A DNA stretch of 64,000 nt from Peribacillus sp. FSL P2-0133 (lineage in GTDB: Bacteria; Bacillota; Bacilli; Bacillales; DSM-1321). Position 1 is the stretch's first letter, and every line of letters starts with the position of its first letter. Position numbers and translations under genes: made by a program. This document shows, piece by piece, positions 24,378 to 59,420 of this stretch. A model generated the notes under the pieces. That model searched no databases. It was not told where the DNA came from and saw only the letters and a list, made by a program, of their open reading frames with translations. Location of the stretch: the NCBI RefSeq assembly GCF_037975445.1, contig NZ_CP150254.1, positions 4,462,001 to 4,526,000 of the forward strand, given 5' to 3'.

Positions 24378-25012
24378 ATTCACGAGTATTTGCTCCAAAC
24401 TCACGAGTAAACGCATCAAACTCACGAGTAAACGTATCAAACTCACGAGTAAATGCATCAAACTCACAAGTAAATGCGCCAAACTCACGAGTAACGGCTC
24501 TAAACCCGTGAGTGACAGCTTAAATCTCGTGCAATACCCGCAAAATCTTGAGTAAAATCAACCAACTCGTGTTTGAACACCAATTCACGAGTATTTGTGC
24601 CAAACTCACGAGTATTTGCGTCAAACTCACGAGTAAATGCGCCAAACTCACGAGTAAACGCTCCAAACTCACGAGTAACGGCTCTAAACCCGTGAGTAAC
24701 AGCTTAAATCTCGTGCAATACCCGCAAAATCTTGAGTAAAATCAACCAACTCGTGTTTGAACAATAATTCACGAGTATTTGCGTCAAACGCACGAGTAAA
24801 CGCTCTAAACCCGTGATTAACAACTTAAATCTCGTGCAATCCCCGCAAAATCTTGAGTAAAATCAACCAACTCGTGTTTGAACATCAATTCACGAGTAAA
24901 TGCGCCAAACTCACGAGTATTTGCGTCAAACTCACGAGTAAACGCTCCAAACTCACGAGTAAACGCTCCAAACTCACGAGTAACGGCTCTAAACCCGTGA
25001 GTAACAGCTTAA
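24378..25012. repeat. 21-bp tandem repeat array (ACTCACGAGTAAA units)
   Basis: About 18 canonical copies of CTCACGAGTAAA-type units, mostly with a 21-base period, plus degenerate copies (CCCGTGAGT, AATCTCGTGC). The array has higher-order structure: the stretch AATCTTGAGTAAAATCAACC starts at 24543, 24728 and 24848, so blocks of about 185 and 120 bases were duplicated. It lies between the Zur-regulated operon and mtlD. The same unit in opposite orientation forms arrays at 44.6 and 58.6 kb. Open frames within it encode only 7-residue repeats and are not genes. Confidence 0.93.
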
Positions 25013-25062
25013 ATCTGTGCAATAGCACCCAAAATCTTAAGAAATAACAACTAACTTTTGAT

Positions 25063-25101
25063 TTACTGCACTAATTCGCATTTTGTAAAACCTAATCTCA
25101 T
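25063..25101 (-). CDS. Possible 12-codon leader peptide downstream of a Zur-like promoter
   Basis: ATG at 25101 is preceded by AAAGGAG at good spacing (7 bases) and encodes MRLGFTKCELVQ. It follows a TTGTAA/TATAAT promoter with Zur-like sites at 25121-25141 and 25184-25204. It may be a leader peptide or the remnant of a gene interrupted by growth of the repeat array. Expression is not shown. Confidence 0.3.
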   Translation of the reverse strand: MRLGFTKCELVQ

Positions 25102-25120
25102 AAAAAAGCTCCTTTCAAAC

Positions 25121-25141
25121 AAATCATAATGATTACGATTT
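25121..25141. promoter_or_regulatory. Second Zur-type box
   Basis: AAATCATAATGATTACGATTT, a 21-base Zur-type palindrome with one arm mismatch, between the short frame at 25063-25101 and the promoter at 25179-25208. Confidence 0.72.
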
Positions 25142-25178
25142 ATACCTTAAATAAACCCTCTTGTCTTGACTGTCTTTC

Positions 25179-25208
25179 ATTATAAAACGTAATGATTACT
25201 GTTTACAA
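25179..25208 (-). promoter_or_regulatory. Promoter with embedded Zur-like site
   Basis: Minus strand: TTGTAA (25208-25203), 18 bases, TATAAT (25184-25179). The spacer is almost filled by a third Zur-like palindrome (25184-25204, core CGTAATGATTACTG). It fires toward the ABC operon, about 970 bases away across the repeat array. Confidence 0.6.
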
Positions 25209-25263
25209 GGTTTTTTTAAGTTTTAAAGTTTATCTGATATATAATTGGCTTTTTGATTAAGAA

Positions 25264-25294
25264 AAAACTCCTGAAAAAAGATTTCAGGAGTTTT
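25264..25294 (-). terminator. Terminator after mtlD
   Basis: Thirteen-base perfect arms AAAACTCCTGAAA and TTTCAGGAGTTTT, 5-base loop, just past the mtlD stop. Confidence 0.85.
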
Positions 25295-25300
25295 CGGCTT

Positions 25301-26452
25301 TTATTTCAAATTGTTGTAGTGGTTGATAACTTCTTTGGTTATTTCGTTATTTTCGTCCAATCCGCTAACTTCTTTAAGTGCTGTAGCTATACCGTTTTCT
25401 TTGATCATCGTTTGCAGTTTAAGGGCTTCTTCATCTTCGTTAAAATCAAAGAGTAATGCGGCGGCTATCGCTTTCGCCAGATTAGTATAGGAAAGTCCGG
25501 CTTTTTTAGCTTCTACGGCAGGGCGCACGAGGCGGTCGTTTGGCCCGAGCTTGCGCAGCGGTGAACGGCCGACTCTATTCACCGAGTCATTCAGGTAGGA
25601 GTTTTTAAATCGATTAATGATTTTTTCGATATACTGCTGATGCTCATCTGCATCCAAACCGTATTGCTTTATTAAATAAGCGCCCGTTTCCCCTAGGGTT
25701 TTCTTGACTTGCTCTACAATGCCTGCGTCCTCCAATGATTGGTCAATCGTCGATTTTTTATTTTTGAGATAACCGAGGTAAGCAATGACGGCATGTCCTG
25801 TATTAACGGTGAACAGTTTTCTCTCAATGAACGGAGCGAGTTCTTTTACAATGGTCATCCCTTCCACGGCAGGAATGCTTTCATTCGTTTCAACGACCCA
25901 TTCATAATAAGGTTCCACCAAAACATCGAGTGATCCTTCGTTATTTTGGATAGGAACGATGCGATCGACTGCTGAGTTAAAGAAGTATACTTTATCGGCT
26001 AGTTTTTCTTTTGTATCTTGATCCAAGTTTTCTAGAATGTAGCCTTCTAAAAGGTCTGTTGCCGATATTTGGTTTTCACAAGCGATCACATATAATTTTT
26101 CATCGGTTTCCTTTACCCTTGAGGCTAATCCTTTAGCAATTAAAGGCGCGATATGAGGCAAAATATTGGGACCGATAGCTGTAGTGAGGTAGGTTGCTTC
26201 GGAAATTGCTTTAATGATTTCCTCTTCCTGCTTTAAGCTGTTTAAACCCGAAACATTTTCTACTGTTTCGGATTCTTGTTGATCAGTAGCCAGTTTGACT
26301 TGGTATTGCTTTTTATCATTTAACTGATCGATGATTTGATCGGCTATGTCCACAAAAGTCACATGATATCCAGATTGTGAAAAGAGTGCTCCGATAAATC
26401 CTCTTCCAATGTTTCCTGCACCGAAATGTACTGCTTGTTTCATTACAATCAT
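25301..26452 (-). CDS. mtlD: Mannitol-1-phosphate 5-dehydrogenase
   Basis: A 383-residue polyol-specific long-chain dehydrogenase oxidising mannitol-1-phosphate to fructose-6-phosphate with NAD. The N-terminal Rossmann turn is HFGAGNIGRGFIG, and the catalytic lysine region is NTGHAVIAYLGYLKNKK, with substrate residues in NDSVNRVGRSPLRKLGPNDRLV. It overlaps the mtlR stop by four bases, so the two are translationally coupled, and mtlA lies upstream on the same strand. Last gene of the mannitol operon. Confidence 0.95.
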   Translation of the reverse strand: MIVMKQAVHFGAGNIGRGFIGALFSQSGYHVTFVDIADQIIDQLNDKKQYQVKLATDQQESETVENVSGLNSLKQEEEIIKAISEATYLTTAIGPNILPHIAPLIAKGLASRVKETDEKLYVIACENQISATDLLEGYILENLDQDTKEKLADKVYFFNSAVDRIVPIQNNEGSLDVLVEPYYEWVVETNESIPAVEGMTIVKELAPFIERKLFTVNTGHAVIAYLGYLKNKKSTIDQSLEDAGIVEQVKKTLGETGAYLIKQYGLDADEHQQYIEKIINRFKNSYLNDSVNRVGRSPLRKLGPNDRLVRPAVEAKKAGLSYTNLAKAIAAALLFDFNEDEEALKLQTMIKENGIATALKEVSGLDENNEITKEVINHYNNLK

Positions 26453-28539
26453 CCCTTTATCAAGTTAGTATATAAATAATCCAAAAATATGGCTTCCAGC
26501 CTTCTGTTAATCATTTCCTCGTCCGAAGATGAAAAAATCATGATGGATTCATTGCTTTCAATTAAGCTTGAGCTTATTAAGCTGACGATTTCCTGCTGCT
26601 TCACACTCAATTCTTCAGGTGCCAGCATCAGAAGTAAATTTTTCATATGGACTTCATTTCCATCCATACCTTTGACCAGTCGATATTCCTCCAGGTGGGC
26701 CACCTGAAATATCAGTTCTTTCACATTCTTGTGTCTCGTATGGAAAAGGCCCATTCCAGTGCCAGGAATGCCTAAACCACCTTTTTTTTCCCTTTCGTTC
26801 AAGGATTCGATTACATCATCCGCACCCATTAGCAGTGATTCATTTTCAGCCATTCTGACCATTTCTTCGATGATCTCTGGATGTCCTTTAAGATGCGGCA
26901 GCCGATAAAACCGGAAATTATCCATGATTGACTCGATGCTCTGCTGGGCATCTTTCAATTCCTGCAGCACTTCTTTCAATTCGCCATCCTCTTTTTTGGT
27001 CACGGTATCCTTATGGGCTGAATGACTGCCATAACGCTTATTCTTCGTGAAGTTTTCGATATTCTTCCTTAAATAATTCCTGATGTTCAATATATTCTCT
27101 TCACTCAAAAGAGGGGATACAAGAATATAATCACTATCGATATACGGAAGCCGGACGGTAGAAATGATCACATCATAGTTTTTCAGGCTGCCCTGCTGCT
27201 GGATGTCTTTGATCGTCTTGATTTCTACAGTCTCGATTTCGATGATTTCTTTTTTGATCCGGCTTGCAAGCATCTTCGACGTGCCGATACCTGTCGGGCA
27301 AACGATAAGTGCCCTTATTGATATTTCTTCCTCCCGCAGCACTAATGCAGATCCGAAATGCAGGACGATGAAGGCTATTTCATCTTCGGGAAATTCTCTT
27401 ATTTCTTTGAATCCCTTTTCCAGACTGGTCTTTACTGCCAAAAAGAGAACCGGATACTTTCGTTTAATATCTTCGGTTAAGGGGTTGTACAATCCCATTT
27501 CCTGTTTGATCCGGAAAAGCGATGGTTCCATATGGGCAAGGAGCCCTTGATACAATGGGAAATCCTTGGTCAAATCGATTTGCAGTTGTGCCGAAACATC
27601 TTTTATCAGGTTTCTTATCAGCTGGCCAAGCAACACACTGTCATATGGAACAGCATCCGCCGCATGAAGCTTGGAACCTTTAAGGATGGCTGCCAGGTAG
27701 CTTATATCATCGATGGTAAAAGAGACTTCCAGCATGGTGCTGAGTTCCTTGCCTATTTTATTCATGAGATTATTCTCATCGGAAAGTTCGCTTATTTTCT
27801 TGAAGTCCTTCTCCAAAAAAAATTGGCTTTCATTCCTTTGCAGGGTTACATAAATATGTACAATTAACCCTATATACCCGCTATCCGCCAATCGAGAATG
27901 GACACTGTTAAAAGTGGAAAACAGCACCCCATCGATAGCCTGAAGATATTCGGGATCGAAATAGTCGAGGATTTTCGCTTCTGGGAATTTTCCTTCTTGC
28001 AACAAAAATAAACTTTCAATCAGCTCTTCATTAAAAAAGTGCAAAAAATAGGCGGCCTGTGCTTTCCGTTTATTTTCTTCAGTGCCGGCAAGCTCTATTC
28101 CGACTCCCCTTTTTCTCGTAATCACGATATTAAAATTCTTTAACCATTCAGTCAGTTCGTCCAAATAGGTTGTAAGAGTCGTAATGCTTATACCGAGATC
28201 CCCCGCAAGAACTTGAGTTTTATATGATTCTTCCTGCAGTAAAGCTAACAGGAGATGCAACTTTCTTTCTTGTGGCGTTTGATCGATTGGATGATTGCCC
28301 ATCAGGTGCTGTACAAGCCGAAAGACTTGTTCATTCTTCCCGTCGATGGTCAGTCCCTCATGTGTATTTCGTGTTAAATGCAACTCAAATGATTGCAGGA
28401 TTTTTTCTATGGACTTCAGATCACGTTGAACAGTCCGGACACTAACATTCAATTGTGTCGCAATGGATAAGGCTGTATGTTTTCCAGAAGTTTTTATGAT
28501 CAATTCTATGATTGATTTTTCCCTTGAAGTAATATACAT
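26449..28539 (-). CDS. mtlR: PTS-controlled mannitol operon activator
   Basis: A 696-residue multidomain regulator. The N-terminal helix-turn-helix (ALSIATQLNVSVRTVQRDLK) is followed by a second HTH region, two PRDs (about residues 180-400), an EIIB-Gat-like domain with the phosphorylatable cysteine in ALIVCPTGIGTSKM, and an EIIA-Mtl-like C-terminal domain with GLFHTRHKNVKE. In Bacillus, MtlR is activated by HPr phosphorylation of PRD2 and inhibited through EIIA/EIIB, coupling mtl transcription to mannitol transport. It lies between mtlA and mtlD with a hairpin before it. Confidence 0.93.
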   Translation of the reverse strand: MYITSREKSIIELIIKTSGKHTALSIATQLNVSVRTVQRDLKSIEKILQSFELHLTRNTHEGLTIDGKNEQVFRLVQHLMGNHPIDQTPQERKLHLLLALLQEESYKTQVLAGDLGISITTLTTYLDELTEWLKNFNIVITRKRGVGIELAGTEENKRKAQAAYFLHFFNEELIESLFLLQEGKFPEAKILDYFDPEYLQAIDGVLFSTFNSVHSRLADSGYIGLIVHIYVTLQRNESQFFLEKDFKKISELSDENNLMNKIGKELSTMLEVSFTIDDISYLAAILKGSKLHAADAVPYDSVLLGQLIRNLIKDVSAQLQIDLTKDFPLYQGLLAHMEPSLFRIKQEMGLYNPLTEDIKRKYPVLFLAVKTSLEKGFKEIREFPEDEIAFIVLHFGSALVLREEEISIRALIVCPTGIGTSKMLASRIKKEIIEIETVEIKTIKDIQQQGSLKNYDVIISTVRLPYIDSDYILVSPLLSEENILNIRNYLRKNIENFTKNKRYGSHSAHKDTVTKKEDGELKEVLQELKDAQQSIESIMDNFRFYRLPHLKGHPEIIEEMVRMAENESLLMGADDVIESLNEREKKGGLGIPGTGMGLFHTRHKNVKELIFQVAHLEEYRLVKGMDGNEVHMKNLLLMLAPEELSVKQQEIVSLISSSLIESNESIMIFSSSDEEMINRRLEAIFLDYLYTNLIKG

Positions 28540-28584
28540 GCTACCAACTCATTTCTGGTGGAGTAACACGAGAAAATACTGAAT

Positions 28585-28607
28585 AGAAAAGCGTAAAACG
28601 CTTTTCT
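28585..28607. terminator. Hairpin between mtlA and mtlR
   Basis: AGAAAAGCGT and ACGCTTTTCT arms with a 3-base loop. Only a weak U tract follows on the minus strand, so it may attenuate or stabilise the mtlA message rather than fully stop transcription. Confidence 0.6.
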
Positions 28608-28634
28608 ATTCTTGGTTAAGTTTATTTAATTATT

Positions 28635-30569
28635 TCAGACATTTATAATGTCCATCAATTCCCTGGCTGATGTGGCTTTAACCATCTTTTCGATATTCTC
28701 CATCTCAGAGCAGGTAACTGCAATGCCAGATAGAATTTCAAGATGTGTACCGTCCTTGCCGGCAATGCCGAATATCAATCGTGCCTTTTGGCCGTCAAAG
28801 TCGACTCCATCAGGAATTTGTAGAACGGTAAATCCAGATTTAAGGACATCTTTCTTAGCTTCCTCGGTTCCGTGCGGAATGGCTACATCATTCCCCATAT
28901 AGGTTGAAGTCAATTCATCACGGGCAATCATTGCTTCAATATAGCTTTCCTTAACGTAACCTGCATTGACCAAAGCTCTTCCCGCAAAGCGGATCGCTTC
29001 TTCCTTATTGGCGAATTGTTGATTAAGGAAGACGTTTTCTTCGCGAAGCAATTCATTATCATCCTGCTCATCAACGTTGATGCCAGGCTCGATTGAATGT
29101 TCACGAACACCGGGAACCTTCTCTTCAGCATCTTCGACGATTTCATGCAGCTCATCGGTGCCATCGTCCTGAAGCCGTGCAAGCAATGAATCGTATTCAG
29201 GGCTCGATAGAAAATTATCGACGGATACATGATAAGCATTCGGCACTTTATTCTGTGCCCTTGGAGTTAACTCTTCCTGTGTTATGACGATTTGTGCATC
29301 AGCAGGAATGTTCGAGATCGCCGTATTGGTCACGGTGATATTCAATCCGGCTTCCTTCACCTTCTTGCGAAGCAGCGAAGCTCCCATCGCACTTGACCCC
29401 ATCCCAGCATCGCAGGCAAATATTATTTTGCTGACGTTTGTTGGCATCGTTCCCGGATCTGAAGCGAATACATCGGCAACAGAGCTTTTCTTGCCTTTCA
29501 TTTCTTGCATTTTTTTCGCGGCATCTTCAATATTCTCTTCAGATTGCTTTCCTGTTTTCAGGATGAATGCACCGACGATGAATGAAACAAGGGCGGCTAC
29601 GATCACGCCTGCAAAGTTAGCAATATATGCGCCCGCATTATGCGGAGTTACTGCTGTAATGGCAAGTATGCTGCCTGGAGAAGCAGGAGCGAACAATCCT
29701 CCGCCTAGTAGGACCAATGTGAAAACTCCACTCATGCCTCCAAGAATGACGGCTAAGAATAACATCGGCTTCATTAGGATATAAGGGAAATAAATTTCAT
29801 GGATCCCCCCGAAGAAATGAATGATGGCAGCTCCTGGAGCCGATTTCTTCGCCGTTCCCTTTCCAAAAAAGCAATAGGCAAGCAATACGCCGATACCCGG
29901 TCCAGGATTCGATTCCAGCAGGAACAGGATTGAAGCCCCTGTTTGTTTAACTTGCTCTACACCGATTGGTGATAGTACACCATGATTGATGGCATTGTTC
30001 AAGAACAATACCTTGGCAGGCTCGATCAGGATACTTGTCAACGGCAGTAAACCTGTACCGACAAGCCAATCGACTCCTGCTACAAGCCAGCCTGTAAATA
30101 CGTCTACAGCAGGCCCGATGGCCAAGAAGGATAGAATGGACAATAAGCCGCCAATTATCCCCGCTGAGAAATTATTAACAAGCATTTCAAAACCGGCTTT
30201 TATTTTCCCTTCAATCAATTGATCGAATTTCTTGATGACATATCCGCCGAACGGTCCCATTATCATGGCGCCAAGGAACATCGGGATATCAGATCCGACG
30301 ATGACGCCCATTGTCGCAATGGCACCGACTACGCCGCCACGGTGGTCATGGATTAGCTTACCACCCGTATACCCAATTAAAAGCGGCAGTAAAAACGTAA
30401 CCATCGGTGTAACCATTTTGGCAAGGCTTTCATTTGGCAGGAAACCAGATGGGATGAATAGGGCAGTGATTAGCCCCCATGCTATGAAAGCTGATATATT
30501 CGGCATGACCATTGAACTTAGAAAGTTACCGAACTTTTGAACTGCAACTTTTATATTAAAGTGAGCCAT
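28635..30569 (-). CDS. mtlA: PTS mannitol transporter EIICBA
   Basis: A 644-residue fused permease. The EIIC membrane domain (about residues 1-340) contains GGIHEIYFPYILM; the EIIB domain (about 375-470) has the phosphocysteine in FACDAGMGSSAMGASLLRKK; the EIIA domain (about 495-640) has the active histidine in VAIPHGTEEAKKDV. The EIIA domain is fused at the C-terminus instead of being a separate MtlF as in Bacillus subtilis. It imports and phosphorylates mannitol. First gene of mtlA-mtlR-mtlD with GAAGGGA before the ATG and a SigA-like promoter at 30608-30636. Confidence 0.95.
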   Translation of the reverse strand: MAHFNIKVAVQKFGNFLSSMVMPNISAFIAWGLITALFIPSGFLPNESLAKMVTPMVTFLLPLLIGYTGGKLIHDHRGGVVGAIATMGVIVGSDIPMFLGAMIMGPFGGYVIKKFDQLIEGKIKAGFEMLVNNFSAGIIGGLLSILSFLAIGPAVDVFTGWLVAGVDWLVGTGLLPLTSILIEPAKVLFLNNAINHGVLSPIGVEQVKQTGASILFLLESNPGPGIGVLLAYCFFGKGTAKKSAPGAAIIHFFGGIHEIYFPYILMKPMLFLAVILGGMSGVFTLVLLGGGLFAPASPGSILAITAVTPHNAGAYIANFAGVIVAALVSFIVGAFILKTGKQSEENIEDAAKKMQEMKGKKSSVADVFASDPGTMPTNVSKIIFACDAGMGSSAMGASLLRKKVKEAGLNITVTNTAISNIPADAQIVITQEELTPRAQNKVPNAYHVSVDNFLSSPEYDSLLARLQDDGTDELHEIVEDAEEKVPGVREHSIEPGINVDEQDDNELLREENVFLNQQFANKEEAIRFAGRALVNAGYVKESYIEAMIARDELTSTYMGNDVAIPHGTEEAKKDVLKSGFTVLQIPDGVDFDGQKARLIFGIAGKDGTHLEILSGIAVTCSEMENIEKMVKATSARELMDIINV

Positions 30570-30607
30570 TTTGCACTCTTCCCTTCATATTAATATAGTT
30601 TCCTTTA

Positions 30608-30636
30608 ATCTTAAGGTACGTACCTTCCGCATTCAA
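30608..30636 (-). promoter_or_regulatory. mtlA promoter with a palindrome in the spacer
   Basis: Minus strand TTGAAT, 17 bases, TAAGAT. The spacer and the start of the -10 contain a perfect 14-base palindrome AAGGTACGTACCTT (30613-30626), a possible regulator site. Confidence 0.62.
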
Positions 30637-30653
30637 TAAAAGTAAAAGCTAAC

Positions 30654-30676
30654 TTTGTCGCGAAAGAGAAGACAAA
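30654..30676. promoter_or_regulatory. Candidate MtlR operator
   Basis: TTTGTC-N11-GACAAA dyad 18 bases upstream of the mtlA -35 element, where an activator would bind. Assignment to MtlR is by position only. Confidence 0.45.
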
Positions 30677-30726
30677 CATAATGTATCTCACTTTTCCAGA
30701 TTTATTCAGTGCTTGATAAAGACAAA

Positions 30727-30764: not shown

Positions 30765-30770
30765 AGGGCT

Positions 30771-36672: not shown

Positions 36673-37193
36673 TTTATCTCCGAATAGAGATATATCGACG
36701 TAATCTATAGTTTTATCTCCGAATTTAGGGATATATCGACGAAATTTATAGTTTTATCTCCGAATTTAGAGATATATCGACGAAACCTACTGTTTTATCT
36801 CCGAATTTAGAGATATATCGACGAAATTTATAGTTTTATCTCCGAATTTAGAGATATATCGAAGTAATTTACTGTTTTATCTCCGAATTTAGAGATATAT
36901 CGACGTAATCTATAGTTTTATCTCCGAATTTAGGGATATATCGACGAAATTTATAGTTTTATCTCCGAATTTAGAGATATATCGACGAAACCTACTGTTT
37001 TATCTCCGAATTTAGAGATATATCGACGAAATTTATAGTTTTATCTCCGAATTTAGAGATATATCGAAGTAATTTACTGTTTTATCTCCGAATTTAGAGA
37101 TATATCGACGTAATCTATAGTTTTATCTCCGAATTTAGGGATATATCGACGTAATCTACTGATTTATCTCCGATTATAGATATATATACGAAG
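36673..37193. repeat. 41-bp tandem repeat array with internal hairpin
   Basis: Thirteen units, eleven of them exactly 41 bases apart from 36711 onward. Each unit contains TATCTC-N8-GAGATA (or GGGATA) followed by TATCGACG. The five-unit block 36711-36915 is repeated exactly as 36916-37120 (205 bases), showing a recent segmental duplication. The array ends at the alkA stop codon and lies upstream of the collagen-like gene. No coding capacity. Confidence 0.95.
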
Positions 37194-43688: not shown

Positions 43689-44426
43689 TCAATTTTTGTT
43701 AGCGTCAGCAAAATGCCCCATCGCATCACACATGAATTTTGCTAAACCATCACCGTATTTGTCGATATTTTTGGTGAAGCGTTGATCATCCACGTACATT
43801 TGACCTAATCCTTTGAAAGCATCCAGTGAGTATGTGCCGAAGTTATTGTTCAAACAATCATACCATTCTTTAATTAGCTCTTGTGCCTCCTCCGACTTGG
43901 GAGAGTCTTTTCGGATTGAAGCAAGTTTTATATAGATATCCGATACAATTTTCTGTGCATCCTTGGACATGCCCGCCACTTTAGCCTTCGATTCATCGAC
44001 AGCTTTATCCCCCCAAAGCTTGCGGGCTTCTTCTTCATATGGATTCTGACTGAAGTCAAATCCTTCAAATTTTTCTTTATTTGTCATTTGAATTTCCCCT
44101 TTCATATGCTTAATCGACTTTTCGACTGTCTCAATTAATTTATCGAGCTGACTGCGTTTCTCCAGTAACATTTTTTGATGTTGCTTTAACGCATCTTGTT
44201 TATCAAACGAAGAGCTGCTTATCATTTGCTTTATTTCCTTTAACGGCATGCCAAGTTCCCTGAAAAACAGGATTTGCTGCAACATCTCAAGATTATCATT
44301 CGAATAAAGGCGATAACCTGAATCTGTTATTTCCTCTGGAGATAATAACCCGATTTCATCATAATAATGCAGTGTCCGCACACTAATGCCAACTAAATCG
44401 GCTAGCTCTTTCACTTTCATTGCCAC
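43689..44426 (-). CDS. MerR family regulator, TipA/Mta type
   Basis: A 246-residue regulator. The N-terminal MerR HTH (VKELADLVGISVRTLHYYDEIGLLSP) and dimerisation coiled coil (about residues 75-110) precede a TipAS domain (about 115-245, EKFEGFDFSQNPYEEEARKLWG) that binds thiopeptide or other hydrophobic drugs in relatives such as TipA and Mta. The GTG at 44426 has a perfect AAGGAGG 9 bases upstream; the ATG at 44420 is the alternative. It probably activates its own and a transporter promoter, but no efflux gene is adjacent. Confidence 0.9.
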   Translation of the reverse strand: MAMKVKELADLVGISVRTLHYYDEIGLLSPEEITDSGYRLYSNDNLEMLQQILFFRELGMPLKEIKQMISSSSFDKQDALKQHQKMLLEKRSQLDKLIETVEKSIKHMKGEIQMTNKEKFEGFDFSQNPYEEEARKLWGDKAVDESKAKVAGMSKDAQKIVSDIYIKLASIRKDSPKSEEAQELIKEWYDCLNNNFGTYSLDAFKGLGQMYVDDQRFTKNIDKYGDGLAKFMCDAMGHFADANKN

Positions 44427-44485: not shown

Positions 44486-44617
44486 ATGGAAAAATGAAAG
44501 TTTTCCGCCCAATTATAAAAGACGATCCTTCCTAATGAAGAATCGCATGTTAGTATAGAGTTCACTTTTTGTAAAAGCTTAGGATTAAAGCTAAATCTAT
44601 GTATTAAATTTCCCCAT

Positions 44618-44714
44618 TACTCGTGAATTTGACGCCTTAACTCGTGAATTTGTGCTTTTTACTCGTGAGTTTCCGCCTTTTACTCGTGAGTCTGACGCTT
44701 TTACTCGTGAATTA
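44618..44714. repeat. Five-copy 21-bp ACTCGTGA repeat
   Basis: CTCGTGA starts at 44620, 44641, 44662, 44683 and 44704, exactly 21 bases apart. Same unit as the large arrays at 24.4 and 58.6 kb. It lies between the TipA regulator promoter and the end of the pentapeptide-repeat gene. Confidence 0.92.
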
Positions 44715-44778: not shown

Positions 44779-45633
44779 CTACCTCCAATGATCGGGAATG
44801 TTTAATGTGAGCGGTAATTTTGTCTTCGTATCACCTTTAGCCGAGTTAATCTGTGCTTGTGTGATGAAGAAACTCCCGGTGAGATCGGCACCGCTTAAAT
44901 CAGCGTCCCTAAAGTCTGCACCGATAAGATCCGTCACTCTCATGTCAGCTTCTCTGAGGTCGGATGCGATAAGTAAAGCTCCTCTTAAGTTCGCTCCCCT
45001 AAGGTCAGCACCTCTCAACTTTGCACCGATAAGGTCACTTCCCCTCCCTATTTTGTTCTGTTTTTTCTGATTTTTATTTTTATTAAATGATACCTTTTCA
45101 CGTACGAGTTCACTTGTGCGCAGAAGTAAATCATTAACGATCGCTCTATGAGCTGGTACATTCAGGTCCATGATGGACTTTGGACTTTGCTTAGTGAGAT
45201 ATTCCGTTTCGTCAAAAGCAGCCTGCAAATCTTGATAAAGAGGTTTCGCATCTTCTAAATTCAGTGCTTCATTTAAGTAACAAAGCATTTCATGAAGTTG
45301 TTGCATAATAGGAAACACATCGAACATTTCCTTTGCTGACGCTGGGTTGTCTCTCCAATCGTTTCCATCATATGTGAGTTGAGATACCTTTTGACCGGCA
45401 CCGAAGCATTCATATACCGTGCAGCCCCTAAATCCCTTTGCTCTGAGATTTTCATGGATGCCGCAACGATAATCCGATTGCAGGTTTGAACATGGTGTAC
45501 CTCCATTTTTATCAAATGCAAAATCAGCAGATTTTGCATAAGGCAAAGCTACACAGCACAAACCAAAACAATTCTCACAGTCTGCACGTAAATGATTAAG
45601 AATACTATCGTTATTCGTTAATTGATTAAACAA
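44779..45633 (-). CDS. Pentapeptide-repeat protein with N-terminal cysteine-rich domain
   Basis: A 284-residue protein. The N-terminal 65 residues carry a cysteine cluster (CENCFGLCC, PCSNL, YRCGIHENLRAKGFRGCTVYECF) that looks metal-binding, similar to YkgJ-like or zinc-ribbon arrangements. A helical middle (about 85-190) leads to about ten pentapeptide repeats (SDLIGAKLRGADLRGANLRG to ADLSGADLTG) forming a right-handed beta-helix. The start is TTG at 45633 with AAGGAAG. Some pentapeptide proteins protect DNA gyrase, but the cysteine domain makes a Qnr-type role doubtful. Function unknown. Confidence 0.85.
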   Translation of the reverse strand: MFNQLTNNDSILNHLRADCENCFGLCCVALPYAKSADFAFDKNGGTPCSNLQSDYRCGIHENLRAKGFRGCTVYECFGAGQKVSQLTYDGNDWRDNPASAKEMFDVFPIMQQLHEMLCYLNEALNLEDAKPLYQDLQAAFDETEYLTKQSPKSIMDLNVPAHRAIVNDLLLRTSELVREKVSFNKNKNQKKQNKIGRGSDLIGAKLRGADLRGANLRGALLIASDLREADMRVTDLIGADFRDADLSGADLTGSFFITQAQINSAKGDTKTKLPLTLNIPDHWR

Positions 45634-52220: not shown

Positions 52221-52500
52221 AAAAAAAGCATATCGTCTCTTCCTTCATAATCAAATGAAGAAAGAGACGATATGCCTTAAGCTTACCGCGGTACCACTCT
52301 TATTGGCTCTTTTCTAGAACCCTGCTTTAAAAACCTTGTAACGAAGGTCAATCGTTAAAACAAAAGAATGGATAATTCCTATCTTTCGCTTTACCACTCC
52401 CAGGCAAGTTCAAAGTATCATTGGACTGCGTTGCACCAACCCGCAGCTCTCTTTACCGAATAATGTGCTTTTACTACTCCTGATCATTGCGTTTCAAAAA
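52221..52500 (-). ncRNA. T-box riboswitch leader with terminator
   Basis: The minus strand contains the T-box core AAGAGTGGTACCGCGG (complement of 52286-52301), an upstream Stem I with AGTA-type loop near 52475-52480, and a terminator of two 21-base arms at 52228-52248 and 52255-52275 (one G-U pair) followed by seven U residues. In Stem I the stretch GAACTTGCC could hold a CUU (Leu) specifier, but I did not fold the RNA. Confidence 0.92.
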
Positions 52501-53044: not shown

Positions 53045-53248
53045 TAAATATCACCCTCTCTAATTAACAATAAGTGTTAATTCTATCAATAACATCCATT
53101 TTTTAAAAGTGAAATATAACCTCGAAACCAACTCTATCATTCTATTTTCATCCATAAAAATTAAAACTATTTTTTCAAATTCTGTCATCAATGTTACAAT
53201 AACAAGGTTGAAATCAATCTATAGAACACGTGAGGTATCATATTTTTT

Positions 53249-54412
53249 ATGAAAGCAATACGATTATTAAAGGGTTTTAACTTTTTATATTTTGGACTGC
53301 TTGCCATTTTCATTCCGTTTCTCCCAGTCTATCTGGCTGATCAAGGTTTGCGTCCAGCCCAAATCGGGTTCATCATCGGTACAGGAGGTTTTGTCACCCT
53401 CATCACCCAGCCTTTATGGGGAATGATCAGCGACAAAACAAGGACGATACGAAAAGTTCTGTTGTTACTCATCTTTTTCTCGAGCGTAATCGGTTATTTC
53501 CTCTATGATTCAAGCAGTTATCTTCAGCTCATCCTGTTTGCCATGCTGCTATATTTCTTTCTGATGCCGATCGATCCCCTGACGGAAAGCCTTAACTTTA
53601 CGATGGCAGAGAAATCCGGGATCAGTTATGGTTCCATTCGGACATATGGTGCATTGGGTTATGCGGTCATATCGCTGATCACCGGCTATGTTATGTCATA
53701 TTTCGGAGCGAACAGCCTGGCCTTTCTTTTTGCGGGCATAGGATTGATCAGTTTCATTATCAGCTGGATGATGCCTGATGCACCCGTTTCGGGAAAACCA
53801 GTCACCTTAAGCAGCCTGAAGCATTTTTTCAGCAATAAAGAGACGCTTCTCTTTCTGTTATTAGTCTTTATCTGTGCTGTTCCAGCAAGGATGAACGATA
53901 CTTTCCTCGGAGTGTATATCCGGGAACTTGGAGGAAGTGCCAAGCTTGTAGGCTTGACCTGGTTCTTAGCGGCGGGAAGTGAAATCGTTGTGTTCGCACT
54001 AAGCTTTTGGTGGCTTCGCAAGGGTAAGGAAATCATCATCATTTCTTTTGCAGCGGCGTTTTTCTTTATCCGTTATTTCATCTCTGCGTGGATTACCGAT
54101 CCACAACTATTAGCTTATTTGCAAGTCATGCAGATATTGACTTTCCCGATTTTCTACTCGGCGGCCATCCAATATCTGTATCGGATCGTTCCGGTGGAAT
54201 GGCGTGCCACAGGCCAGACCGTACTGGCGCTGCTATTCTTCGGGGTTTCGGGAATCATTGCTTCTTATATAGGCGGAGCCATATATGGGGCTTACGGCGG
54301 CAAGACCCTTTACCTGTTCATCTCCTCCATCTCCTTTATAGGAATGGTATTTGCCCTGGTTCTTTATCGGATTTACGGCAAGAGGCTCGATACCGCAGAG
54401 GAAGCCGTATAA
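53249..54412 (+). CDS. MFS transporter (LacY/YwbF-like)
   Basis: A 387-residue transporter with twelve helices of the MFS_1-like group related to YwbF, HcaT and nucleoside:proton symporters. The motif A-like loop is PLWGMISDKTRTIRK, and IPFLPVYLADQGL begins the first periplasmic loop. The binding site GTGAGG is weak with long spacing, so expression may be low. Substrate unknown. Single gene with a perfect terminator. Confidence 0.87.
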   Translation: MKAIRLLKGFNFLYFGLLAIFIPFLPVYLADQGLRPAQIGFIIGTGGFVTLITQPLWGMISDKTRTIRKVLLLLIFFSSVIGYFLYDSSSYLQLILFAMLLYFFLMPIDPLTESLNFTMAEKSGISYGSIRTYGALGYAVISLITGYVMSYFGANSLAFLFAGIGLISFIISWMMPDAPVSGKPVTLSSLKHFFSNKETLLFLLLVFICAVPARMNDTFLGVYIRELGGSAKLVGLTWFLAAGSEIVVFALSFWWLRKGKEIIIISFAAAFFFIRYFISAWITDPQLLAYLQVMQILTFPIFYSAAIQYLYRIVPVEWRATGQTVLALLFFGVSGIIASYIGGAIYGAYGGKTLYLFISSISFIGMVFALVLYRIYGKRLDTAEEAV

Positions 54413-54428
54413 TCAAAAAAATCGTATA

Positions 54429-54464
54429 AAAAAGAGCATGTTTTGATCAAAACATGCTCTTTTT
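54429..54464. terminator. Perfect 36-base palindromic terminator
   Basis: AAAAAGAGCATGTTTTGA and its exact complement without mismatch; A and T runs at the ends serve both the MFS gene and the minus-strand gene at 54473. Confidence 0.9.
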
Positions 54465-54472
54465 GCATTCCG

Positions 54473-54772
54473 TTAGCGAAATAAAGGGGCAACCGTTAAC
54501 ATTAGCACAGAGAAGCAAAGCAGTATAGTAGTTGTCCTGCTTGAGAGTTTTACTTGTCCGTCATTTTTATAGAACCCTGAAAATTGAAGCCGGTTTTTAT
54601 AGAGTACATAAAGTAATGGGAAAATTGCCATACCAACAATCCATCCGCCTGCGGTATTCTCTACGGTTATACCAAAAATCGCATAGATTGAATTAATGAT
54701 GAACCCCATTATCATTCCAATAACGAAAATAATGGTGATTATACGAAATAATTCTAAGATAACTCTTAACAT
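54473..54772 (-). CDS. Small hypothetical membrane protein
   Basis: About 99 residues with three hydrophobic helices (near 3-28, 37-55 and 77-96) and a basic loop (YKNRLQFSGFYKNDGQVKLSSR). AGGTG lies 5 bases before the ATG at 54772; the frame extends to 54817 without a binding site. No family recognised. Confidence 0.68.
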   Translation of the reverse strand: MLRVILELFRIITIIFVIGMIMGFIINSIYAIFGITVENTAGGWIVGMAIFPLLYVLYKNRLQFSGFYKNDGQVKLSSRTTTILLCFSVLMLTVAPLFR

Positions 54773-54817
54773 CATTTCACCTGCCTTTTTCCCGTGACCA
54801 TAAAAAAAAGGCTGCAA

Positions 54818-54838
54818 TCAGCAACCTTGAATGAACTT
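54818..54838 (-). terminator. Terminator of the lia operon
   Basis: AAGGCTGC and GCAACCTT arms (one mismatch), 5-base loop, with eight A residues at the left end giving a U run. Confidence 0.75.
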
Positions 54839-54899
54839 TACAGGATGGGATATTTATCTAAATATAGCAAACTTTCCTCTATTGGTAAATAGACGCTCT

Positions 54900-55541
54900 T
54901 TACTGCTCTTCTTGAACGAGCGAATGTTTAAATGCGTAAATCACTGCTTGCGTGCGGTCCTGTACGGCAAGCTTACTTAATATATTGCTGACATGCACTT
55001 TGGCTGTTTTCAGGGCTATGTATAGTTCATCCGCAATTTCCTGATTCGTTTTCCCTTGTGTCATCAGCAGCAAAATTTCCATTTCTCGGTTTGTCAATTG
55101 ATCATGAAGCTGGGTAATCTTTGGGCGACGTAACTTCTCCATCATTTTTCCCGTCACTTCAGGTTCAAGTACGCTTTGTCCCTGGAAAGTGGAACGGACG
55201 GCTCTCGCAATCTCGCTGGCCTTTGATGTTTTCAACATATAGCTCGTCGCTCCGGCTTCCAATGCCGGGTACACTTTTTCATCATCCAGGAAGCTTGTCA
55301 CAATGATGATCTTTGCTTCAGGCCATTTTTCGATAATTCGTTTCGTCGCTTCTATGCCGTCCATTTCCGGCATCACTAAATCCATCAAAATGATATCCGG
55401 ACGCAATTCCAATGCCAGTTCGACAGCTTTCAAGCCATTGTCCGCTTCCCCGATCACTTCGATATCCGGCTGTGCAGATAAATAAGCCGATACCCCTATC
55501 CTTACCATTTCATGGTCATCGACAAATAATACTTTAATCAT
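54900..55541 (-). CDS. liaR: Cell-envelope stress response regulator
   Basis: A 213-residue NarL-type response regulator. Receiver acidic pair in [10 protein letters not shown], phospho-aspartate in [15 protein letters not shown], lysine in [10 protein letters not shown]. The C-terminal LuxR HTH is [45 protein letters not shown] precedes two ATGs; 55541 (8-base spacing) is preferred over 55544. Overlaps liaS. It activates liaI upon cell-wall antibiotic stress in Bacillus. Confidence 0.93.
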
Positions 55542-56580
55542 CATGATCACCTCCAGCATTTAATAATGGGATTTTCACTTCAAGTTTCGTTCCTTTATTC
55601 GGAACGCTTACAAGTTGCATCGTCCCGCCTAATTCAACAGCCCGTTCATGCATGTTTTGCAGACCATATGATCCCGTTTTTGACTCCTCGACGTTAAAGC
55701 CGATGCCGTCATCCGTTATCCTTAAAATGATCAGCCCATCACGAACGATCAATAGCACTTCAAGCGAGCTCGCTTTTGCATGTCTCAGTGTATTGGAAAT
55801 CGATTCTTGTAAAATCCGAAACAGATGGTCCTCAATCCCCTTATCCAGAGTGACGGGCTCCATCTTCCAATTTATATCCATCGTCACTTTTTGGGCCAAT
55901 TCCAAAAGAAGCTCCTTCATTCCTTCATGTAAAGATTTTCCCTTTAATGCAACAGGCCTCAAGTGAAGCAATAACGCCCTCATCTCAAGCTGGGATTGAT
56001 GGATCATTTCTTCCACTACCTTGAATTGTTTCATTTCCGTTTTTTCCATATCGGATTGTGACTCGGTGATGGCCGACATGAACATCGAAGCGGCAAACAA
56101 TTGCTGGCTCACTGAATCATGCAGTTCCCGCGCCAAACGGTTTCGTTCCTGGGAAACGATTTCCTGAATCTGTTTCTCCTGATCAATGGCCTTTTCATTC
56201 GCCATTTTTTGTGATAATTTTGTCTGCTCATTGATTTGCTTATGGATTAGATGCATCCTTTCCACCATTTTAGCCATCTCTTGGACCGGATACGTCTCCT
56301 GTTGCGAAGGTAAGCGGCCCTGTTCAAGTAAGTACAGCCCTTCATCCACCCTTTCCAGCTGCCTCTTCCAAAACATTCCCGAAACGACTCCATAAATCAG
56401 CCCTACCGTCATGACCAGACTTGGCAGGAATATGACGAAGGGTAAGCCCATGACCACTTTCTCCCACAATAAGCTCCAGTCGGATAAAGGAAAGATGAAG
56501 AAAACCGCCGCCGGCAAGGCAAGGGAAAGAACGAAAGCAACTCCAAGGGCAGTCAATATCTGCCGTGTCAGTATACTCAT
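55534..56580 (-). CDS. liaS: Cell-envelope stress sensor histidine kinase
   Basis: A 348-residue kinase of the intramembrane-sensing type: two helices (about residues 10-30 and 45-70) with a very short outer loop, a HAMP-like linker, a coiled coil (about 105-145) and a HisKA_3 domain with phospho-histidine in [17 protein letters not shown]. The HATPase N box is [14 protein letters not shown] and G box [11 protein letters not shown]. The start overlaps the liaF stop by four bases. LiaF holds it inactive without stress. Confidence 0.93.
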
Positions 56581-57323
56581 ATCCGCTTCACCTCTAAATC
56601 CCCAACTAAGATTGAAGTGATGATATGAACCTTTTGATCCGTTTCATTGAACCCTTCCGTTTGGTAGGAATAAATTTGATTAAAGACCCTGGATTCAGGC
56701 TTATTTTCAAAAATCCTCGCTCTGCCTGCAATGACAGAATGATGGACCCTGATTTCGATGCCATATGGTACGAGAACAGTGATATTGCCAATGATATTCC
56801 TGATGGAAATGACAGCGTCGCCTTTCGGTAAAATCGTTTTGCTTAAATCGATAACCGTATCACCGACCCCGCCCTGAACATTCACGGAATTCCATTCATA
56901 TACTTGCTCGGCCGTCTGTTGATGACCGAAAAACTTATTTTTAAAAAGGTAGTCGGTTTTCAGCAATTGTTCCTTATTGATCTTTTCTTCGTCCGAATCA
57001 TCATTGATTAAAATGGGACTGACCCAATCAGGATTCTTTTTGGACTGATAATATAAAAACAAAAGATAAATGAGGATCGCCATTAGGAAAAATTTAAAGA
57101 CGAACATATTCAAGACATTGATGATAAGCGAAATCAACCCTATAAAAAATAGGATTTTCCCGATTGTCCGTTTTGTGAATTTCCTGCCTAAATAGATGCA
57201 TCCTATTGAAAAAGCGAAGGAAAAAAGGAGACCTCCACCCTTAAATGCAATCTCTAAAAAAATCAGGACGACTCCGATGAGAAGTATCCATCCCATATAG
57301 TCCGTCTTCATCTTGTTCAACAT
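56577..57323 (-). CDS. liaF: LiaF inhibitor of LiaS
   Basis: A 248-residue membrane protein with four hydrophobic segments in the N-terminal 95 residues and a soluble C-terminal domain (about 125-248) with the family pattern INVQGGVGDTVIDLSKTILP-like strands and the PYGIEIRVHHSVIAGRARIF block. It represses LiaSR in the absence of stress. AGGGGAGG lies 7 bases before ATG 57323. A 16-bp hairpin separates it from liaH. Confidence 0.9.
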   Translation of the reverse strand: MLNKMKTDYMGWILLIGVVLIFLEIAFKGGGLLFSFAFSIGCIYLGRKFTKRTIGKILFFIGLISLIINVLNMFVFKFFLMAILIYLLFLYYQSKKNPDWVSPILINDDSDEEKINKEQLLKTDYLFKNKFFGHQQTAEQVYEWNSVNVQGGVGDTVIDLSKTILPKGDAVISIRNIIGNITVLVPYGIEIRVHHSVIAGRARIFENKPESRVFNQIYSYQTEGFNETDQKVHIITSILVGDLEVKRI

Positions 57324-57352
57324 CGGTTCGCCTCCCCTTTATATGATCACGA

Positions 57353-57392
57353 TATTCTTAAAAGGCACAGGAACCCGTGCCTTTTAAGAATA
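57353..57392. terminator. Hairpin between liaH and liaF
   Basis: TATTCTTAAAAGGCAC and its perfect 16-base complement across an 8-base loop. It should end most liaI-liaH transcripts and lower liaFSR expression, as the hairpin downstream of liaH does in Bacillus subtilis. Confidence 0.82.
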
Positions 57393-57480
57393 CCATGAAA
57401 TTATCATTTTCTGACAGCCCGTTTTCCCCCGCCCTCCATTCCAAAAGGTCAGGGGATAACAGCGATGCCTTAAAAAAACT

Positions 57481-58116
57481 TTACGCTTCTTTCTGTTCCA
57501 ATTCTTTTTCAAGCTGGACAATCCTGGCATCGATCGTATGCCGATTATAATCAGTATGGACCTGGTGCTCGATGCGATCAATATAATGCTCCATTTCTTC
57601 AAACATCGCTACCGGTTTGGCTTCGGATCTGCCCCCATCCAAAACCCGATTGATCCGGTTGTTTGCCCGGGCAATATTTTCCCTGCCCATCAGCTCCAGA
57701 CGCTTTAGATGCATATCCTTCAGCTTATGCTTCATTTCTTCATATTTCCGCTCCAGTTCAGCCAACTGAACCTCTGCACTTTTATGCGCCTCCTTCAAAC
57801 TTAGCGCTCGCTCTTCATAGTGCAGGCTTTCCTTTACAGCAAACTCCATTAAATCCGTTTCTCCCGACTGCTTGGCAATCTCAGCCTGATGCTTACGTTT
57901 TTCAGCCAGATTTTGCGCTTGATTATATTCACGCGTAAACTCTTCTTTCAAAAGATATTGACGTTCAAGCAGCTTACCGACCTTTTCCGCCTCCTGCTCA
58001 CATTGACGCAAATATTGATTTAACATTCCAATTGGATTTTTTTGCTCCTTTTTATCCAACAAGTCGTGAAAATCCGCTGAAATCGTTTGTTTCATTCTTG
58101 AAAATAAATTACCCAT
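57481..58116 (-). CDS. liaH: PspA/IM30 family phage-shock protein
   Basis: A 211-residue, almost wholly coiled-coil protein of the PspA/IM30 family, starting MGNLFSRMKQTISADFHDLLDKKEQKNPIGMLNQYLRQCE. Charged heptads run through about residues 30-150 (AEVQLAELERKYEEMKHKLKDMHLKRLELM). It forms large oligomers at the membrane under envelope stress. The major target of LiaR together with liaI, 19 bases upstream. Confidence 0.93.
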   Translation of the reverse strand: MGNLFSRMKQTISADFHDLLDKKEQKNPIGMLNQYLRQCEQEAEKVGKLLERQYLLKEEFTREYNQAQNLAEKRKHQAEIAKQSGETDLMEFAVKESLHYEERALSLKEAHKSAEVQLAELERKYEEMKHKLKDMHLKRLELMGRENIARANNRINRVLDGGRSEAKPVAMFEEMEHYIDRIEHQVHTDYNRHTIDARIVQLEKELEQKEA

Positions 58117-58135
58117 TCCAATTACATCCCTTCTA

Positions 58136-58483
58136 TTAGTTCTTATTCAACTCTTTCCACTCTCTTTCAAAATTTGAGAATGGGTCATTTTCTTTCGATG
58201 ATGCACTTTCATCATTTTCATTCCATTTTTTATAGACTAGGTAAAGAACATAAGCTGCCACCAATCCCAATATTGCCGGGATATGAGAAATAGAAATGAT
58301 CAGCACGATAATGGAGACGGACCCCCATGCAATCTTGGCCCCTGTCGATTCGGACTTCATGAACTGCTTGAATCCAAAGTATAGGATCGCCAAGCAAATC
58401 GCCAGGCTGATCAATGGACCAACATTCGCCAGTAAAAAAAATAAGGCGATCAGTCCTACAATAAATAAACCAAATTTCTTCAT
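58136..58483 (-). CDS. liaI: LiaI membrane anchor for LiaH
   Basis: A 115-residue protein with about three hydrophobic helices (near 4-20, 22-38 and 47-78) and a charged C-terminal tail (NENDESASSKENDPFSNFEREWKELNKN). Longer than the usual two-helix LiaI but in the liaI position with GGAGG and the LiaR-type dyad upstream. It recruits LiaH to the membrane in Bacillus subtilis. Confidence 0.85.
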   Translation of the reverse strand: MKKFGLFIVGLIALFFLLANVGPLISLAICLAILYFGFKQFMKSESTGAKIAWGSVSIIVLIISISHIPAILGLVAAYVLYLVYKKWNENDESASSKENDPFSNFEREWKELNKN

Positions 58484-58565
58484 TGTTTTCGTCCTCCTTT
58501 CCTTGTTTATATCTTATCTACTTTTACAACTTCGTATAATGAGCCTTAGCTATATTTTCTAGTAA

Positions 58566-58591
58566 GACTTAAGGCGTAGACGCTGTAAGTC
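58566..58591. promoter_or_regulatory. Dyad upstream of liaI, predicted LiaR operator
   Basis: GACTTA-AG-GCGT-AG-ACGC-TG-TAAGTC, a 26-base dyad with nested arms, 83 bases upstream of liaI. Assigned to LiaR by position. Confidence 0.6.
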
Positions 58592-58627
58592 CCACGCTAA
58601 TGAGGGCGTTTTGATCGTGTGTTTGAG

Positions 58628-59420
58628 TGCTTTACTCGTGAGTTTTGGCGTTTACTCGTGAATTCTGCCGGCTTACTCGTGAGTTTGGTCGGTTTACTCG
58701 TGAGTTTGGGCATTTACTCGTGAATTCTGCACCTTTACTCTGAGTTTGGGTGGTTTACTCGTGAATTCTGCGCCTTTACTCGTGAGTTTGGGTGGTTTAC
58801 TTGTGAGTTTGGGTGGTTTACTCGTGAATTCTGCGGTTTTACTCGTGAGTTTAGGTGGTTTACTCGTGAATTCTGCGCCTTTACTCGTGAGTTTGGCGTT
58901 TACTCGTGGGTTCTGCTGGTTTACTCGTGAATTTTGCGGTTTTACTCGTGAGTTTGGTCGGTTTACTCGTGAATTCCGCCGGTTTACTCGTGAGTTTGGC
59001 GTTTACTCGTGGGTTCTGCTGGTTTACTTGTGAGTTTGGGTGGTTTACTCGTGAATTCTGCCGGCTTACTCGTGAGTTTGGGTGGTTTACTCGTGAGTTT
59101 GGTCGGTTTACTCGTGAATTCCGCCGGTTTACTCGTGAATTTGGCGTTTACTCGTGAATTCTGCGCCTTTACTCGTGAATTTGGCGTTTACTCGTGAATT
59201 CTGCCGGTTTACTCGTGAGTTTGGGTGGTTTACTCGTGAATTCTGCGCCTTTACTCGTGAGTTTGGGTGGTTTACTCGTGAATTCTGCGCCTTTACTCGT
59301 GAATTTTGCGGTTTTACTCGTGAGTTTGGGCGGTTTACTCGTGAATTCTGCCGGTTTACTCGTGAATTCCGCCGGTTTACTCGTGAATTCCGCCGGTTTA
59401 CTCGTGAGTTTAGTGTTTTT
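58628..59420. repeat. Large 21-bp tandem repeat array (TTTACTCGTGARTT units)
   Basis: About 38 copies of ACTCGTGAATT or ACTCGTGAGTT, separated mainly by 21 bases with some 19-base units. Spacers between cores are drawn from a small set (CTGCGCCTTT, GGGTGGTTT, CTGCCGGTTT). The 21-base period keeps all frames open in stretches, which explains several repeat-only open frames on both strands. Lies between the lia operon promoter and the tetR terminator. Confidence 0.95.

What the first reader, a model, noticed from the sequence alone, without database searches (positions are those of the whole stretch)
24378..59420. 21-bp ACTCGTGA repeat family at three separate intergenic loci
Seen: arrays at 24378-25012 (minus orientation), 44618-44714 and 58628-59420 (plus orientation) share the core TTTACTCGTGARTT and a 21-base period, with about 18, 5 and 38 copies. 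The core ACTC-GT-GAGT is a short dyad; 21 bases equal two DNA turns, so all cores face the same side of the helix. This fits an ordered protein-binding or nucleoid array, though spread as a selfish repeat is also possible. No mobile element is adjacent.
Basis: partly seen in the sequence, partly recalled or inferred. Interest (0 to 1): 0.75.

Follow-up and report, generated by a model that had tools for sequence, protein, structure and literature searches.

The report
Replication-oriented 21-base DNA repeat arrays
Soil bacteria of the genus Peribacillus carry dozens of short tandem-repeat arrays between genes, mostly pointing the same way relative to DNA replication, whose shared 14-letter core has changed in step across one branch of the genus, which suggests that something in the cell reads it.

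Summary
In detail: three arrays of about 18, 5 and 38 units with core TTTACTCGTGARTT. They are 3 of 35 arrays in this 5.81-Mb Peribacillus chromosome. The class is in print: 21-nt tandem repeats characteristic of the Bacillus simplex group (PMC8161180). The dyad and fixed helical face fail: the dyad breaks in 45-47% of units and is absent from a sister clade's core; 18-20-bp units shift the phase.

Not found in the papers I searched: (1) many arrays sit at orthologous sites with conserved orientation while copy number varies widely, so they are old. (2) AAYTCACGAGTAAA points origin-to-terminus in 195 of 226 arrays (37 of 47 loci), also in gene-neutral convergent gaps. (3) The core varies about 12 times less than the spacer. 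(4) In a sister clade the core became mostly TTTACTCGCCAATT genome-wide, with P. muralis mixed; exchange of tracts of 30 bp or more between loci is not evident.

Best reading: polar docking arrays for an unidentified sequence-specific DNA-binding factor that co-evolves with the core. Main rival: a selfish array amplified by a core-specific enzyme. No binder was identified. Novelty: new variant of a known kind.

The parts
24377..25012 (-). array 1: 18 cores (up to 2 mismatches) with three ~100-bp interludes of degenerate units; one of the minority arrays in leading-strand orientation
44616..44713 (+). array 2: 5 cores, majority (lagging) orientation
58631..59410 (+). array 3: 37 cores plus one with an internal deletion, majority (lagging) orientation; the same site carries 3-42 units in 20 of 22 compared Peribacillus genomes
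59454..59486 (-). intrinsic terminator of the TetR-like gene, between its stop codon and array 3
   Evidence: sequence; script match
25260..25294 (-). intrinsic terminator of the mannitol-dehydrogenase-like gene, between its stop codon and array 1
   Evidence: sequence; script match
59504..60118 (-). TetR-family regulator gene next to array 3 (PF00440), used as anchor for the orthologous site
58136..58483 (-). 115-aa ORF downstream of array 3, no Pfam match
43689..44426 (-). MerR/TipAS-type regulator gene flanking array 2
44779..45633 (-). pentapeptide-repeat protein gene flanking array 2
22683..24212 (-). solute-binding protein gene (SBP_bac_5) flanking array 1
25301..26452 (-). mannitol dehydrogenase-like gene flanking array 1

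Best explanation
The arrays are vertically inherited, non-coding docking sites for a sequence-specific, orientation-sensitive DNA-binding factor that acts on the replicating or segregating chromosome (a translocase, segregation or nucleoid factor; identity unknown). Shown: an asymmetric 14-bp core held far more tightly than its 4-7-bp spacer; many conserved sites and orientations; bias with replication direction that persists in convergent gaps; preference for convergent gaps and avoidance of divergent ones; a genome-wide change of core in one clade without evident exchange of longer tracts between loci. Inferred: that a trans-acting factor reads the core; that unit turnover inside each array lets every array follow a drift in the factor's specificity; that orientation matters because the factor works with the fork or along the origin-terminus axis.
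For: Polarity: 28 of 35 arrays in the own genome; 195 of 226 arrays, no array of mixed orientation; 37 of 47 independent loci (p=1e-4); all 22 arrays read in G014 (see against). In convergent gaps, where gene direction is neutral: 66 of 82 arrays, 14 of 18 loci (p=0.03), 17 of 21 with three further G014 loci (p=0.007). Core constraint: adjacent 21-bp units differ 0.041 per site in the core (position 12 left out) and 0.466 in the spacer; random units from different arrays 0.051 and 0.636; units were picked by at most 2 core mismatches, which lowers the core figure, but only 186 intervals of 37-43 bp mark skipped units beside 2862 counted ones. Core switch: TTTACTCGCSAATT 147 and 218 exact copies in G014 and G030 against 4 and 3 of TTTACTCGTGARTT; own genome 2 against 263; P. 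muralis mixes TG and CG inside arrays; the switched genomes form one clade with P. muralis at its base. Same-genome different-locus pairs share a 42-mer no more often than different-genome different-locus pairs: 2 of 1531 against 10 of 6740. Divergent gaps avoided: 1 of 35 against 79 of 315.
Against: No binding protein was found or tested. Exact-core counts range from 8 (G028, a draft of about 130 contigs) to 523 (G031) among near relatives, and the pheT site of G028 has lost its array, so the arrays are dispensable at least in part. 14 of 36 genus genomes hold no exact core and a 400-kb stretch of one of them holds no comparable 21-bp array. 10 of 47 loci point the other way, seven of them in more than one array. 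In G014 about 15 exact copies on the other strand lie outside the listed places and were not read. Where both neighbours lie on the lagging strand, orientation is only 16 of 24 lagging (4 of 6 loci), so gene direction may contribute. Conversion tracts shorter than 30 bp are not excluded.
Confidence: 0.4

Rival explanations
1. Selfish arrays amplified by a trans-acting enzyme (nickase, HUH or recombination enzyme) that recognises the core on single-stranded DNA at the fork, so that units duplicate in one orientation; lineages that lose the enzyme let their arrays decay.
For: Polarity relative to the fork, core-only conservation, large copy-number swings and low-copy or degenerate lineages G018, G019, G028, core switch in one clade.
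Against: Many sites are old and shared between species; median copy number does not differ between lagging and leading arrays (10 and 13, p=0.73); no core pair in IMG/VR contigs and no match in the plasmid and phage collections (the BLAST low-complexity filter is on); no candidate enzyme was searched for.
Confidence: 0.27
2. Neutral minisatellites: replication slippage in untranscribed gaps, with core homogeneity from short-tract ectopic conversion and orientation fixed by history at array birth.
For: Arrays lie in gaps that tolerate insertion; copy number is hypervariable; orthologous loci share units more than other pairs do.
Against: Slippage alone would homogenise spacer and core alike; the core is about 12 times more conserved. 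Sharing between loci of one genome is hardly above that between genomes: 2.8 against 2.5% for 30-mers, 1.7 against 1.4% for 35-mers, 0.13 against 0.15% for 42-mers. The locus-level orientation bias needs a cause (p=1e-4).
Confidence: 0.15
3. Transcribed arrays that act as small RNAs or RNA sponges (suggested in print for such repeats).
For: The TTTACTC strand of array 3 folds better than 20 shuffles (z -5.1), the other strand z -2.7; 52-nt repeats of B. coagulans are reported as transcribed (PMC8161180).
Against: Folding is weaker in the one sister-clade array tested (z -2.2 and -0.3), so the pairing is not clearly conserved; terminators were found between stop codon and array at 26 of 46 gene ends (no control); no Rfam match on an array in the window.
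Confidence: 0.08
4. Orientation only mirrors gene direction, for example arrays as parts of 3' ends antisense to the gene, and has nothing to do with replication.
For: 106 of 112 arrays between two leading-strand genes are antisense to them; 34 of 35 own arrays face a gene 3' end; in convergent gaps the antisense gene is the nearer one in 51 of 82 arrays.
Against: Bias persists in convergent gaps (14 of 18 loci) and in gaps between two lagging-strand genes (4 of 6 loci).
Confidence: 0.1

Closest known systems
21-nt tandem repeats of the Bacillus simplex group (Subirana and Messeguer 2021, PMC8161180)
   Same: Same group of organisms, same period, non-coding, many per genome, a shared short sequence; very probably the same repeats (inference). 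The paper proposes a nucleoid protein or small RNA and notes two helical turns.
   Different: In parts 1-3 of 5 and the term passages that I read: no replication orientation, no orthology of sites for these repeats, no clade-specific core switch.
STAR elements of Staphylococcus (PMC3532100)
   Same: Intergenic direct repeats, 14-bp conserved core, variable copy number, 32-39 loci per S. aureus genome; the authors argue against recombination between loci.
   Different: Different GC-rich core, spacers of 40 bp or more, at most 7 motifs per locus and mostly one, no locus shared between species; a term search of the paper gave no 'orientation' or 'leading'.
KOPS / SpoIIIE recognition sequences (FtsK family guides)
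   Same: Asymmetric motif oriented origin to terminus in each arm (KOPS abstract start seen in the listing).
   Different: Those are 8-bp motifs spread singly over the chromosome (single spread recalled); here 14 bp in 21-bp tandem arrays and another sequence.
REP sequences with RAYT transposases (recalled)
   Same: Intergenic, clade-specific sequence types co-evolving with a trans-acting protein.
   Different: REPs are palindromic hairpins; this core is not, and arrays are tandem at fixed sites.

Membership tests
21-nt tandem repeats of the B. simplex group | 20-21-nt tandem repeat, many arrays per genome | tested here: met
   35 arrays; 306 of 382 intervals are 21 bp (349 are 18-22 bp)
21-nt tandem repeats of the B. 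simplex group | restricted to the simplex group | tested here: inconclusive
21-nt tandem repeats of the B. simplex group | not protein-coding | tested here: met
   intervals of 18-20 bp break any frame; arrays lie between genes
21-nt tandem repeats of the B. simplex group | same repeat sequence as the listed families | not testable with these tools
STAR elements | 14-bp consensus T(G/A/T)TGTTG(G/T)GGCCC(C/A) | tested here: not met
   core is TTTACTCGTGARTT
STAR elements | spacers of 40 bp or more | tested here: not met
   spacer mostly 4-7 bp
CRISPR array | repeats of 20 bp or more split by unique spacers of similar length (recalled) | tested here: not met
   14-bp core, mostly 4-7-bp spacers
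FtsK/SpoIIIE guide motifs | oriented origin to terminus | tested here: met
   195 of 226 arrays
FtsK/SpoIIIE guide motifs | single short motifs spread over the chromosome (recalled) | tested here: not met
   cores occur mainly in tandem arrays
FtsK/SpoIIIE guide motifs | bound by the gamma domain | not testable with these tools
   needs a binding assay
REP/RAYT | palindromic hairpin unit (recalled) | tested here: not met
   dyad broken in 45-47% of units and absent in the sister-clade core
Known RNA family | covariance-model match | tested here: not met
   only an unrelated T-box in the window at the gathering threshold

The most novel reading that the evidence does not exclude
A replication-polar address system: dozens of tandem docking arrays mark each chromosome arm with direction for a factor whose DNA specificity has drifted between species, dragging the arrays with it (TG to CG to CC at core positions 9-10), as a motor, segregation or fork-associated factor and its sites co-evolving.
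Probability: 0.28. Interest if true: 0.88.

Novelty: new variant of a known kind. Interest (0 to 1): 0.62.

Why it matters
Bacterial 20-21-nt satellites have been catalogued without a function. Replication polarity, fixed sites and a clade-wide core switch turn them from a curiosity into a testable system: one factor with changed specificity between two sister clades should bind one core and not the other. If the factor is a chromosome motor or segregation protein, it would be a guide system in array form; if it is an amplifying enzyme, a new type of bacterial selfish repeat.

Tried and rejected
Coding repeat: rejected, intervals of 18-20 bp break the frame. Perfect dyad operator: rejected. 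Strict helical phasing: rejected for array 3. Recent mobile element: no match on plasmids or phages, no core pair in IMG/VR contigs, many sites shared between species. Composition skew as cause of orientation: on the TTTACTC strand G exceeds C (0.218 and 0.193), so the leading-strand version runs against the leading-strand GC skew seen in the G001 and G006 loci. Conserved RNA structure: weaker in the one sister-clade array tested. Ectopic gene conversion of tracts of 30 bp or more: no clear excess. Species without the exact core carrying other 21-bp arrays: none comparable in 400 kb of G011; only 20-21-bp repeats of up to 3.8 copies. Literature: the core string TTTACTCGTGA occurs in one unrelated paper (listing only); searches for Peribacillus plus tandem repeat, for orientation of tandem repeats, for the authors of the satellite papers, and for concerted evolution of intergenic repeats listed nothing whose title or abstract start describes the polarity or core switch. 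PMC8625621 was seen in passages only. The 2020 J. Bacteriol. paper of the same authors is not held. G014 was read from the first listed places only. A first gene call classed the 35 own gaps as 18 codirectional, 16 convergent, 1 divergent; searches use a second one (19, 15, 1). One search printed wrong flanks for 14 of 22 loci (orientation of loci); one search corrects it. In one search the neighbour gene is placed wrongly for some rows (repeat units read as ORF). A gene association with array copy number could not be run.
Full report
OBSERVATION. The window holds 62 matches to the core with up to 2 mismatches, 60 of them in the arrays; 100 shuffles gave a mean of 1.08 and a maximum of 4. The window is positions 4462001-4526000 of a one-contig 5.81-Mb genome with 263 exact cores and none of the reversed control. 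A BLAST scan and fetched stretches give 35 arrays of three or more copies; of 382 intervals between cores 306 are 21 bp, 29 are 19, 10 are 20, 3 are 18, 1 is 22 and the rest are longer.

WHO CARRIES IT. The exact core occurs in 22 of 36 genus genomes and in none of 7 other genomes of the family.

PRIOR KNOWLEDGE. PMC8161180 (parts 1-3 of 5 and term passages read) already reports 21-nt tandem repeats as the mark of the simplex group, notes that 21 nt is two helical turns, and proposes a nucleoid protein or small RNA. So the class is known. The parts read do not mention orientation with replication.

UNIT ANATOMY. Over 2862 units from 226 arrays, positions 1-11, 13 and 14 each keep one base in more than 92% of the 2441 units of 21 bp; position 12 is A 43%, G 55%; the spacer is nearly free apart from its first base. 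Adjacent 21-bp units differ 0.041 per site in the core (13 sites, position 12 left out) and 0.466 in the spacer; random units of different arrays 0.051 and 0.636. Units were picked by at most 2 core mismatches, which lowers the core figure; 186 intervals of 37-43 bp mark units that were skipped, too few to explain the gap. Array 3 drifts through more than one helical turn (vector strength 0.22).

POLARITY. dnaA starts the contig and a dif-like site lies at 2796205. In the own genome 28 of 35 arrays have TTTACTCGTGARTT on the lagging-strand side, that is, AAYTCACGAGTAAA reads from origin to terminus. I added the best-scoring arrays of five more chromosomes (the listing was cut at 150 rows over 8 genomes, so these are subsets) and all 120 contig loci. 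dnaA starts the contig in G031, G017 and G024 but not in G006. Of 252 arrays 26 were dropped as too near a stretch end; of the remaining 226, 195 have the majority orientation and none is mixed. GC skew gives the same arm as dif in 107 of 108 cases; for G001 and the 120 loci the arm was called by skew alone. Clustered by flanking proteins the 226 arrays are 47 independent loci, 37 with majority orientation (p=1e-4). Genes do not explain all of it: convergent gaps 66 of 82 arrays, 14 of 18 loci (p=0.03); gaps between two lagging-strand genes 16 of 24 arrays, 4 of 6 loci. Between two leading-strand genes it is 106 of 112. In G014 all 22 arrays read are majority-oriented by GC skew, but these came from the first listed places, and about 15 exact copies on the other strand lie outside them.

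SITES ARE OLD. 36 of the 47 loci have more than one array (mostly the same site in other genomes). Three arrays disagree with their locus; all three are in loci whose arm was called by skew alone, and for two of them (L040, L101) the orientation relative to the flanking genes matches the others. At the site of array 3, 20 of 22 genomes carry 3 to 42 units with similar flanking sequence; P. muralis has one degenerate unit and G010 none. Copy number over all arrays runs from 3, the cut-off, to 87. Median copies do not differ by orientation (10 and 13, p=0.73).

PLACEMENT. Of 35 own arrays 1 lies in a divergent gap against 79 of 315 array-free gaps in the same fetched stretches (p=0.001), and 15 lie in convergent gaps against 60 of 315 (p=0.004). 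34 of 35 face at least one gene 3' end; at 26 of 46 such ends within 400 bp a simple script finds a terminator between stop and array (no control was run). At the pheT site, where the gap was read correctly (for example L358, L359, L362), the array lies between two terminators, and the gap is short and empty in several distant species. The own genome has 26 arrays in the left arm and 9 in the right (p=0.01), unexplained.

CORE SWITCH. G014 and G030 hold 147 and 218 exact copies of TTTACTCGCSAATT against 4 and 3 of TTTACTCGTGARTT; the own genome 2 against 263. In 22 G014 arrays (156 cores) positions 9-10 are CC in 75%, CG 14%, TG 3%; in 32 own arrays (396 cores, same looser seed) TG 85%. By flank comparison 14 of the 22 G014 arrays match array loci of the other clade: 12 in the same sense (10 on both flanks), and two at L354 on one flank in the opposite sense, perhaps separate arrays. 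P. muralis (G013) mixes TG and CG inside arrays; its 20 loci were picked because they hold C-type cores, and L053 duplicates L418 in that table. A tree of the TetR gene from 21 of the 22 loci puts G013 at the base of the clade of G018, G019, G014 and G030, support 1.0 for the five (one short gene). Loci in one genome hardly share more 30-, 35- or 42-mers than loci in different genomes (42-mers: 2 of 1531 against 10 of 6740), while orthologous loci do (7 of 218). So exchange of such tracts between loci does not explain the uniform core; very short tracts remain possible.

HOW IT MOST LIKELY WORKS. Shown: core-only conservation, polarity, old sites, clade-wide switch. Inferred: a trans-acting factor reads the asymmetric core; arrays turn over by slippage, so that a drift in specificity spreads to all arrays; orientation matters for a process tied to replication or segregation. 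I hold this at 0.4, a core-specific amplifying enzyme at 0.27. The strongest points against a vital role are the exact-core range of 8 to 523 among near relatives and the array lost from the pheT site in G028.

RNA READING. The TTTACTC strand of array 3 folds with z -5.1 and the other strand -2.7 (20 shuffles each); a G014 array gives -2.2 and -0.3 (200 shuffles). Pairing is therefore not clearly a kept feature, though only one sister-clade array was tested.

COMPARISON. STAR elements (PMC3532100, parts 1-2 of 5 and passages) are the nearest architecture but differ in core, spacer, copy number and in not sharing sites between species. KOPS share the polarity only; that paper was seen as a listing entry.

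Noticed in passing
window 36673-37187: Another tandem array: 12.6 copies of a 41-bp unit that looks like two 20-21-bp half-units (TTTATCTCCGAATT... and ATATCGACGAAAT...), possibly a second repeat family of the same style.
   Followed up: partly
L282 and L289 (site of array 3 in G023 and G006): Inside the ACTCGTGA arrays lie several units of a different 21-bp type (GATATATTCG...GTTTGAGT), so two repeat types can share one array.
   Followed up: no
own genome, G000: Arrays are about three times as frequent in the left arm (26) as in the right (9); the same tendency in G031 (23 and 6), G017 (13 and 2) and, less, G024 (10 and 6), which were only partly listed.
   Followed up: partly
window 24377-25012: Array 1 has a higher-order structure: blocks of 21-bp units split by three ~100-bp degenerate interludes that hold core-like bits in the other orientation; its minority orientation is shared by its orthologues L108 and L147.
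   Followed up: partly
window 52260-52496: T-box leader on the minus strand (RF00230).
   Followed up: no
L369 (pheT site of G011): Scattered bits resembling TTTACTCGCCACTT and TTACTAACCAACTT in a species without exact cores, perhaps remains of an older array or a third core.
   Followed up: partly
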